A stretch of DNA of 34,332 nt, from assembly GCA_009841165.1 (NCBI GenBank), contig VXMI01000160.1, forward strand, positions 1-34,332, written 5' to 3'. Shown piece after piece: positions 13,479 to 14,906 of this stretch (its first letter is position 1; every line of letters begins with the position of its first letter). The stretch comes from Gemmatimonadota bacterium. GTDB lineage: Bacteria > Gemmatimonadota > Gemmatimonadetes > Longimicrobiales > Gaopeijiaceae. The notes below the pieces were generated by a model. It saw nothing but the letters and a program-made list of their open reading frames with translations. It was not told where the DNA came from and did no database searches. Position numbers and translations under genes: made by a program.

Positions 13479-13838
13479 TCAGTTGCTCAGCGCGGACTTC
13501 GCGCGCTCGGCGAGCGAAGCGAAGGTGTCCGGGCTGCGGATCGCCAGATCGGCGAGCGCCTTGCGGTCGAGTTCGATGCCCGCGCGCTGCAGGCCGTTCA
13601 TGAAGCGGGAATAGGAAATGTCATTCTGGCGGGCCGCGGCGTTGATCCTGGTGATCCAGAGCCGGCGGAAGTTCCGCTTCTTCTTCTTGCGGTCACGGTA
13701 CGCATGCTCCCATCCCTTTTCCACCGCGTCCTTGGCGGTCCGGTACAGGTTCTTGCGGCCCCCGAAGTACCCCTTTGCCGCGCGCAGGATCTTCTTCTTG
13801 CGCTTCTTGCGCGCGACCGAATGCGTGGAACGCGCCAT
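13479..13838 (-). CDS. rplT: 50S ribosomal protein L20
   Basis: Assembly protein of the large ribosomal subunit and, in several bacteria, a repressor of its own operon. The 119-residue product is highly basic at the N-terminus (MARSTHSVARKKRKKKILRAAKGYFGGRKNL). It has the conserved WITRINAAARQNDISYSRFMNGL block and ends at residue 119, the normal length. It sits 43 bp after rpmI. The leader upstream of infC has features that could be an L20-responsive attenuator. Confidence 0.97.
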   Translation of the reverse strand: MARSTHSVARKKRKKKILRAAKGYFGGRKNLYRTAKDAVEKGWEHAYRDRKKKKRNFRRLWITRINAAARQNDISYSRFMNGLQRAGIELDRKALADLAIRSPDTFASLAERAKSALSN

Positions 13839-13881: not shown

Positions 13882-14079
13882 CTATGTGCCCGGCAACATC
13901 CGGCGCACGCGTTTCACGTCGGCGTCGGCCGCCACCGTGCCCGTACGCAGCCGCCGTTTCCGCTTGCGGTTCTTCTTGGTCAGGATATGGGACTTGTAGG
14001 CCCGCATCCTCGCGAGTTTGCCCGATCCGGTCTTGCGGAAGCGCTTCGCGGCTCCCCTGTTCGATTTCATCTTCGGCAT
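13882..14079 (-). CDS. rpmI: 50S ribosomal protein L35
   Basis: Small basic ribosomal protein, 65 residues: [22 protein letters not shown], then [15 protein letters not shown], the normal L35 pattern. The start ATG at 14079 is 25 bp after infC. Its gene lies between infC and rplT, the standard order, and is surely co-transcribed with both. Confidence 0.97.
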
Positions 14080-14104: not shown

Positions 14105-14620
14105 CTAAGTCTTGAGCGGACTCAGGATCATGGTCATCTGGTTCCGCTCGAAATTGGGATACTGTTCGACCTTGGCGTGTTCGCTGAGGTCCCTGGTAGC
14201 GCGCAGCAGCACCTCCCGTCCGAGTTCGGGGTGCGTCACCTGACGGCCCCTGAACATCATCGTGAGCTTGACCTTGTTGCCTTCCGACAGGAAGCGCCGC
14301 GCGTGGCGCAACTTGAAATCGTAGTCGTGATCCTCGATTCCCGGACGGAACTTGACCTCCTTGAGCTGCACGGTATGCTGCTTCTTGCGGGCTTCCCGCG
14401 CTGCGCGTGCCGCCTTGTACTTGTACTTGCCGTAGTCCATCAGGCGGACCACCGGCGGTCTGGAATCCGGCGCGACTTCCACGAGATCGAGGCCCCGCTG
14501 GGCGGCCCGGGCACGCGCGTCGTCCAACGACACGATCCCGATCTGCCCGCCCTTCTCGTCGATCAGTCGAATCGGGCTGATTCGGATCTGTTCGTTCACC
14601 CGGACGCGTTTTTCTGCGAT
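14105..14620 (-). CDS. infC: Translation initiation factor IF-3, probable ATC start
   Basis: Binds the 30S subunit, prevents premature 50S joining and proofreads the initiator codon. The core starts with [21 protein letters not shown], includes [22 protein letters not shown] and ends in the C-terminal domain [19 protein letters not shown] at 14599 would give 164 residues but has no ribosome binding site. Reading upstream in frame gives IAEKRVR, starting at an ATC (14618-14620), with AGGGAG at good spacing upstream (9 nt from GGAG). infC of E. coli and B. subtilis uses AUU, and IF-3 represses its own non-canonical start, so an AUC start giving 171 residues is the better model. It is inferred from sequence, not proven. 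Confidence 0.93.
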
Positions 14621-14641: not shown

Positions 14642-14661
14642 GGGACGGCCGCGGCCGTCCC
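14642..14661. promoter_or_regulatory. 20-bp perfect palindrome (hairpin) in the infC leader
   Basis: Positions 14642-14661 form a perfect palindrome, GGGACGGCC-GC-GGCCGTCCC, able to fold as an 8-9 bp GC stem. In the infC transcript it ends 11 nt before the AGGGAG ribosome binding site, so it could control access to that site or protect the leader. On the plus strand it is followed by CGGTTTTTG and would look like an intrinsic terminator, but no plus-strand gene ends here. Role unknown. Confidence 0.5.
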
Positions 14662-14707: not shown

Positions 14708-14728
14708 AAAAGCCCGGATTATCCGGGC
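14708..14728 (-). terminator. Intrinsic terminator (attenuator) in the infC leader
   Basis: On the minus strand GCCCGGA-TAA-TCCGGGC (7-bp stem, 3-nt loop; 14712-14728) is followed by TTTTGT (14706-14711). It lies about 140-165 nt into the predicted infC leader, downstream of the promoter at 14877-14906, so it would act as an attenuator rather than as the thrS terminator. A TCCGGGT segment at 14774-14780 (minus strand) can pair with the GCCCGGA arm and so form a competing antiterminator. Between them lies a small GGGTG-CTT-CACCC hairpin (14746-14758). Confidence 0.6.
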
Positions 14729-14876
14729 CGTTCGACCTGCCGGCCGGGTGAAGCACCCGCCGCCGACCTGAAGACCCGGAAGCTCGTCAGCTACGAGGGT
14801 GAGAGGCGGTCAGTCCTCTTCTTCCTGATTTTCGTTTGGCCGATGAGAAAACGCCGGCCAAGGGGCACAGACTTTT

Positions 14877-14906
14877 ATTATCGACAATTCATGGGTCGAG
14901 TGTCAA
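14877..14906 (-). promoter_or_regulatory. Strong sigma-70-type promoter for infC-rpmI-rplT
   Basis: On the minus strand a perfect -35 TTGACA (14901-14906) and a -10 GATAAT (14877-14882, five of six) are 18 bp apart. The local region is AT-rich against the GC-rich background. A start near 14870 gives a leader of about 250 nt before the ATC start of infC. It lies directly after the thrS stop, so infC has its own promoter as well as any readthrough from thrS. Confidence 0.7.

What the first reader, a model, noticed from the sequence alone, without database searches (positions are those of the whole stretch)
14708..14780. Terminator-antiterminator pair in the infC-rpmI-rplT leader
In the predicted 250-nt leader an intrinsic terminator (GCCCGGA-TAA-TCCGGGC-TTTT) is preceded by TCCGGGT (14774-14780), which can pair with the first arm of the terminator, with a small hairpin (14746-14758) between. 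This is the architecture of an attenuator. The L20 leader of Firmicutes is regulated this way, but this sequence differs, so it could be a new leader class.
Basis: partly seen in the sequence, partly recalled or inferred. Interest (0 to 1): 0.55.

Follow-up and report, generated by a model that had tools for sequence, protein, structure and literature searches.

The report
L20-type attenuator before infC-rpmI-rplT
The start of this ribosomal-gene message carries an RNA switch that most likely shuts the genes off when ribosomal protein L20 is in excess, a control reported so far mainly from Firmicutes but found here in most examined Gemmatimonadota and many Actinomycetota.

Summary
The minus-strand leader of infC-rpmI-rplT has a terminator (14729-14708), an upstream strand able to pair with its first arm (14780-14773), and a hairpin between. 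96 of 101 gemmatimonadotal infC leaders have its AAG-P1-C[A/G]CC; in 62 aligned cores the invariant columns are AAG, CC and GG, matching the AA dimer and G-C pairs published for L20-binding leaders, and 7 of 7 P1 pairs change on both sides. A covariance model finds infC leaders in whole genomes (95 of 95 hits examined). In 16 genomes with several infC copies the motif precedes 16 of 16 copies followed by rpmI-rplT and 0 of 18 solo copies: it tracks L20/L35, not IF3. Rfam's L20_leader model, over its cut-off in 0 of 101 class genomes, still has its best matches in infC leaders (46.8 bits, E 2.5e-7). Folding predicts the antiterminator first and the terminator once complete. Best reading: an L20-responsive transcription attenuator, a divergent relative of the Firmicutes L20 leader; the core also occurs in 21 of 28 sampled Actinomycetota. 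L20 binding and truncated transcripts are untested.

The parts
14877..14906 (-). promoter-like site TTGACA-18-GATAAT
   Evidence: consensus scan, 11 of 12; similar TTGACA...TATAAT-like sequences at this place in the genus by eye
14821..14823 (-). AAG, conserved unpaired element (AA dimer)
   Evidence: invariant in 62 of 62 aligned cores
14802..14819 (-). hairpin P1, AGAGG-ACTGACCG-CCTCT
   Evidence: 7 of 7 model pairs change on both sides across 62 sequences
14774..14801 (-). CACCC ... GGGT with hairpin P2 (14796-14784); CC and GG invariant
   Evidence: fold
14773..14780 (-). switching strand TCCGGGTC: partner of CACCC in P2 or of the terminator's first arm
   Evidence: predicted fold; sequence and length vary in relatives
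14708..14729 (-). intrinsic terminator with TTTT
   Evidence: equivalent hairpin plus T-run detected by script in 91 of the 96 leaders with a core
14105..14620 (-). infC (IF3), probable AUC start at 14620-14618
13882..14079 (-). rpmI (L35)
   Evidence: ORF; name recalled; homologues in the order infC-rpmI-rplT in relatives
13479..13838 (-). rplT (L20), proposed source of the regulator
   Evidence: ORF; name recalled; homologues in relatives

Best explanation
It is an L20-responsive transcription attenuator. RNA polymerase starts near 14870 and makes AAG-P1-CACC-P2, then P3, then the terminator. With little free L20, the strand UCCGGGUC leaves P2 and pairs with the first arm of the terminator, so polymerase reads into infC-rpmI-rplT. 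With L20 in excess over rRNA, L20 binds the AAG and the CC/GG pairs at the P1-P2 junction, holds GGGU in P2 and so frees the terminator, and transcription stops near 14708. Shown by sequence and computation here: the conserved and covarying sensor, its link to rpmI-rplT rather than to infC as such, the competing predicted folds, and the resemblance to the Firmicutes L20 leader. Inferred: that L20 is the ligand, the direction of control, and that termination happens in cells.
For: 96 of 101 infC leaders carry the core; strict rule 95 of 101 against 0 of 101 on the reverse complement. Invariant AAG, CC, GG fit the two features given for L20 leaders, an AA dimer and two consecutive G-C pairs (PMC7247131, passages). 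P1 covaries. Model R1: 95 of 95 examined class hits at E<=1e-3 lie just upstream of infC. Several-copy test: 16 of 16 infC copies with rpmI-rplT have the motif, 0 of 18 solo copies (R1 agrees). RF00558 hits infC leaders of families f8 and f5 at 46.8, 33.0 and 31.9 bits. Folding: antiterminator -47.4 against P2 -41.0 before the second arm is made; terminator -51.6 against antiterminator -49.8 when complete. Switching strand fits its own terminator arm better than arms of other families, 17.1 against 13.3, best of 200 swaps 14.1. B. subtilis precedent: L20 binding at the H1-H2 junction favours a terminator before infC (PMC6097659 section 5).
Against: No binding or transcript data. The window scores only 13.0 bits with RF00558 (cut-off 58.7), and 0 of 101 class genomes pass it. 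Folding z-scores are modest and the window's T-run is short. The antiterminator appears in minimum-energy folds of 68 of 91 leaders, but also in 328 of 910 trials with the strand shuffled; the terminator in 63 of 91; both in 48 of 91. In 47 of 91 leaders some other segment fits the arm as well; the fit is weaker in f6, f7, f9 and f10. RNAalifold on its own predicts P1 only, and one covariation measure (number of pairs with a two-sided change) does not exceed shuffles. L023 and L026, of genera with infC close to the window's, lack the sensor.
Confidence: 0.8

Rival explanations
1. The leader senses L35 (rpmI product), alone or together with L20, rather than L20.
For: rpmI always accompanies rplT in the copies examined, so the copy test cannot separate them.
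Against: The invariant bases match the published L20 signature and the Firmicutes homologue is controlled by L20.
Confidence: 0.08
2. The leader senses IF3, the product of the first gene, and feeds back on infC.
For: The leader stands directly before infC, and infC seems to start with AUC, AUU or AUA in most leaders, a known hallmark of IF3 feedback on translation in E. coli (recalled).
Against: 0 of 18 infC copies without rpmI-rplT have the motif, 16 of 16 with them do.
Confidence: 0.04
3. The terminator is a plain stop for readthrough from thrS or a constitutive damper, and the rest of the leader has another role such as stability.
For: thrS lies directly upstream in the window; the antiterminator is not predicted in 23 of 91 leaders.
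Against: A promoter-like site lies between thrS and the leader; the sensor is conserved and covaries; the switching strand tracks the terminator arm.
Confidence: 0.06
4. The leader is a riboswitch or T-box type attenuator for a small molecule or tRNA.
For: The attenuator layout alone would allow it.
Against: No Rfam family passes its threshold in the window or in 20 relatives; the motif goes with a ribosomal-protein operon in many lineages.
Confidence: 0.02

Closest known systems
L20_leader of Firmicutes (Rfam RF00558; B. subtilis infC-rpmI-rplT leader)
   Same: Same operon; same order AAG, hairpin, C[A/G]CC, second hairpin, GG, optional third hairpin, terminator; L20 site at the junction of the first two helices; transcription attenuation.
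   Different: Sequence has drifted far below the Rfam cut-off (13.0 bits in the window, 0 of 101 class genomes over it); P1 loop and P2 length differ; the papers seen place the L20 leader in Firmicutes, or Firmicutes and Thermotogales.
E. coli rpmI-rplT translational operator for L20
   Same: Controlled by L20 and based on likeness to the 23S rRNA site (PMC10931766, passages).
   Different: Acts on translation through a long-range pseudoknot and an irregular hairpin; infC is not under L20 control there.
Deltaproteobacterial L20 r-leader candidate
   Same: Proposed to keep the AA dimer and two G-C pairs (PMC7247131, passages).
   Different: Another structural scaffold and lineage; not compared by sequence here.
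B. subtilis rplJL leader (L10(L12)4)
   Same: Ribosomal protein stabilises an anti-antiterminator so that a terminator forms (PMC10931766, passages).
   Different: Different protein, operon and RNA; likeness of mechanism only.

Membership tests
L20_leader (RF00558) | located upstream of infC-rpmI-rplT | tested here: met
L20_leader (RF00558) | AAG, first hairpin, C[A/G]CC, second hairpin, GG: the conserved site at the H1-H2 junction | tested here: met
   end-to-end alignment to the model; invariant columns
L20_leader (RF00558) | intrinsic terminator downstream of the sensor | tested here: met
   91 of 96 leaders with a core
L20_leader (RF00558) | alternative structure excluding the terminator | tested here: met
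   predicted in the window; 68 of 91 leaders against 328 of 910 shuffled trials
L20_leader (RF00558) | score at or above Rfam's gathering cut-off (58.7 bits) | tested here: not met
   window 13.0 bits; 0 of 101 class genomes over it; best 46.8 bits
L20 r-leader in the wider sense | AA dimer and two consecutive G-C pairs | tested here: met
L20 r-leader in the wider sense | likeness to the H40/H41 site of 23S rRNA | tested here: inconclusive
   genus 23S has CUAAGUGAG, like AAGUGAG of many family leaders, but the f7 23S reads CUGAGUAUAG there; which AA L20 touches was not available
L20 r-leader in the wider sense | binding of L20 and L20-dependent termination | not testable with these tools
   needs protein and transcription assays

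The most novel reading that the evidence does not exclude
The Firmicutes L20 attenuator is one branch of an old, cross-phylum regulator: the same AAG-P1-C[A/G]CC-P2-GG sensor with a terminator lets L20 control infC-rpmI-rplT across Gemmatimonadota, Actinomycetota (mycobacteria included) and at least one Eisenbacteria lineage, and was missed because it drifts below the Rfam cut-off.
Probability: 0.65. Interest if true: 0.7.

Novelty: new variant of a known kind. Interest (0 to 1): 0.6.

Why it matters
Papers seen here call the L20 leader narrowly distributed to Firmicutes (PMC6097659) or found in Firmicutes and Thermotogales, and suggest re-examining lineages that seem to lack it (PMC3766115, passages). 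This finding is such a case: an attenuator found in nearly all gemmatimonadotal infC leaders examined, with about a hundred natural variants of the switch in hand, and a motif simple enough to find it in Actinomycetota. There, a 326-nt infC 5' UTR richer in reads than the gene (2.6-fold exponential, 4.9-fold stationary) was reported for M. tuberculosis (PMC3207917, passages), with only an analogy to B. subtilis L20 offered. It makes the evolution of a ribosomal-protein feedback loop, and its use in slow growers, directly testable.

Tried and rejected
Rfam at gathering threshold gives nothing for the window or for 20 relatives. Low-threshold hits other than L20_leader (anti-hemB, suhB, SorY, miRNAs and others) look like stem-plus-U-run or GC-rich look-alikes and were dropped. 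Of 20 relatives none gave L20_leader at E<=1; of 14 one did at E<=10 (L017, 20.5 bits).

Direct 23S mimicry by sequence: inconclusive (pattern failed, shown by eye). P1-loop pseudoknot in the window's genus: 13.8 against 12.2 (sd 0.55) for shuffled loops, but the loops are near-identical copies, so not claimed. A joint hit of R1 (25.4 bits) and RF00558 (20.8 bits) in G125:C57 lies inside an open frame without infC, rpmI or rplT nearby and is taken as chance.

Papers: two DOIs that I tried from memory for the B. subtilis L20 work and a Firmicutes survey are not held, so B. subtilis details come from passages and section 5 of PMC6097659 and passages of PMC10931766. PMC2965389 has no mention of L20 or rplT in the text searched, PMC13236596 none of infC or L20. 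That this leader has not been described in Gemmatimonadota or Actinomycetota rests only on the searches in an open-access library; subscription papers were not seen.

Full report
What is there. The window is a Gemmatimonadota contig (infC 99% identical to that of MAG SB0664_bin_10). On the minus strand lie thrS (16860-14923), a promoter-like site (14906-14877), a leader of about 250 nt, infC, and the ORFs read as rpmI and rplT (gene names recalled, order supported by tblastn in relatives). Single-sequence folding is not remarkable: z -1.4, -2.0, -1.1, -1.2. Rfam finds nothing at its thresholds; at low threshold L20_leader aligns end to end over 14829-14700 with 13.0 bits.

Conservation. The leader DNA matches 11 of 96 family genomes: the window's own, 7 of 7 others of the genus, and weak short matches in 3 other genera. 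In the genus the long matches all cover about query 95-214, reaching from about 14835 to 14708. Regions upstream of infC were fetched for 40 family loci and 60 more loci: 10 of the genus, 10 of the order, 40 of other families of the class. With the window, 96 of 101 have AAG, one base, hairpin P1, then C[A/G]CC. Missing: L023 and L026, L160 (an infC copy of a genome that has the motif before another copy), L170, and L039 (cut by a contig end). A strict form of the rule finds 95 of 101 and 0 of 101 on the reverse complement; a looser CACC-only form found 94 and 1.

Structure. Alignment A1 of 62 cores has seven invariant columns: A, A, G, C, C, G, G. On the structure that I named, 80.1% of cells are paired (shuffled 64.2%, slid at most 52.0%); cells with two-sided change 213 (shuffled 94); covariation score 0.471 (shuffled 0.218); the number of pairs with any two-sided change, 15, does not exceed shuffles (14.9). 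P1 has two-sided change at 7 of 7 pairs. In P2 the outer pairs are constant or change on one side, and the inner pairs are paired in about half to three quarters of cells. RNAalifold alone proposes P1 only.

Specificity. Model R1 gives the window 42.0 bits. At E<=0.1 it matches 109 of 149 class genomes and 100 of 150 in a phylum draw that largely overlaps it; both runs used stricter filters that lose weak matches. Of 103 class hits at E<=1e-3, 87 are in genomes with a listed infC place and 86 lie 95-182 nt upstream on its strand. The exception (G145) and 8 of the other 16 were fetched, and 9 of 9 have infC downstream; 8 were not examined.

Which protein. 17 family genomes have two or three infC matches. 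16 were examined (G094, with two infC fragments, was not): 16 of 16 copies followed by rpmI and rplT carry the motif, 0 of 18 solo copies do, and R1 at E<=0.1 agrees, hitting 16 of 16 and 0 of 18. Some regions are cut by contig ends (L247, L269, L274) but hold the parts needed or most of them (L269 has 258 nt upstream). So the leader goes with rpmI-rplT. The invariant AA and CC/GG fit what PMC7247131 gives as shared features of L20 leaders (passages). RF00558 searched in 101 class genomes is over its cut-off in 0, has a match at E<=1 in 11, and its three best (46.8, 33.0, 31.9 bits) are in infC leaders of families f8 and f5. Of the 11, 7 are at infC leaders (G105, G098, G108, G111, G077, G137, G148), G123 lies between an R1 hit and infC, and 3 (G127, G109, G125) are elsewhere. 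R1 also hits L231, L232 and L235 of the f5 lineage, but not L230 (f8). As a control, RF00558 is over its cut-off in 2 of 14 named genomes.

Switch. With RNA ending at the terminator's first arm, the window folds into the antiterminator (-47.4 kcal/mol) rather than P2 (-41.0); when complete, the terminator (-51.6) narrowly beats the antiterminator (-49.8). Over 91 leaders the switching strand fits its own arm better than arms from other families (17.1 against 13.3, best of 200 swaps 14.1) or when shuffled (11.4). Pairing is kept while letters change: CCGGGUC/GGCCCGG in the window's genus, GGGUCGC/GCGGCCC and CCGGGUC/GACCCGG elsewhere in the family, GGAGUUC/GGACUCC in f7. The fit is weaker in f6, f7, f9 and f10, and in 47 of 91 leaders some other segment does as well. 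Minimum-energy folds show the antiterminator in 68 of 91 (328 of 910 shuffled trials), the terminator in 63 of 91, and both in 48 of 91.

Beyond the phylum. Of 62 usable infC loci of other phyla, 31 have the motif (30 Actinomycetota, 1 Eisenbacteria) and 1 on the reverse complement; the others, among them the loci of Alphaproteobacteria, Acidobacteriota, Rokubacteriota, Planctomycetota, Chloroflexi and Solirubrobacterales, do not meet the rule. R1 places hits just upstream of infC in 13 of these loci at E<=1. In 60 Actinomycetota genomes, 60 have infC; 30 loci were returned (those most like the query), 28 were long enough, 21 have the motif and 0 on the reverse complement. The terminator and antiterminator were not tested in Actinomycetota. 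In M. tuberculosis the infC 5' UTR is 326 nt and richer in reads than the gene, 2.6-fold in exponential and 4.9-fold in stationary phase (PMC3207917, passages); I did not check that species' sequence, only other mycobacteria (L119, L120, L128).

Judgement. It works like, and is very probably homologous to, the Firmicutes L20 leader, where L20 binding favours the terminator (PMC6097659 section 5; PMC10931766 passages). It is not filed as a member of RF00558 as now defined, because it fails the curated cut-off. It is a new variant of a known kind, with a wider distribution than the papers seen here state. L20 binding, direction of control and termination in cells are inferred.

Noticed in passing
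14618-14620 (minus strand), and infC starts in L017-L056, L137-L196: infC appears to start at a non-canonical codon: by a crude ribosome-site rule AUC 59, AUU 15, AUA 8 of 101 leaders (CUG 11, GUG 6, UUG 1, AUG 1). That would add an IF3-sensitive start to the L20-type attenuator.
   Followed up: partly
L174, L175, L176, L194 (family f9): The P1 loop holds GATGGAC (GATGG plus AC in L175), complementary to GTCCATC or CTCCATC just before the T-run, so P1 could take part in a long-range terminator. The sequences are nearly identical, so there is no covariation.
   Followed up: partly
L023, L026 (genera g26, g23): Two genera with infC 82-84% identical to the window's lack the sensor; L023 goes from a TCTGTAC start-like sequence almost directly to the ribosome site. 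Apparent loss of the attenuator.
   Followed up: no
L200-L229 and L078-L135: The AAG-P1-C[A/G]CC core stands before infC in many Actinomycetota: 21 of 28 in a phylum sample, and 30 of the 31 positives among other-phyla loci.
   Followed up: partly
L247, L248, L250, L252, L254, L256, L258, L260, L262, L264, L266, L268, L269, L271, L273, L275, L277, L279: Many genomes of the family carry one or two extra solo infC copies, 48-57% identical to the window's, without rpmI-rplT.
   Followed up: partly
14642-14661: A near-perfect 8-pair hairpin lies between attenuator and infC ribosome site; on the plus strand it is followed by a T-run and looks like a terminator for antisense transcripts.
   Followed up: no
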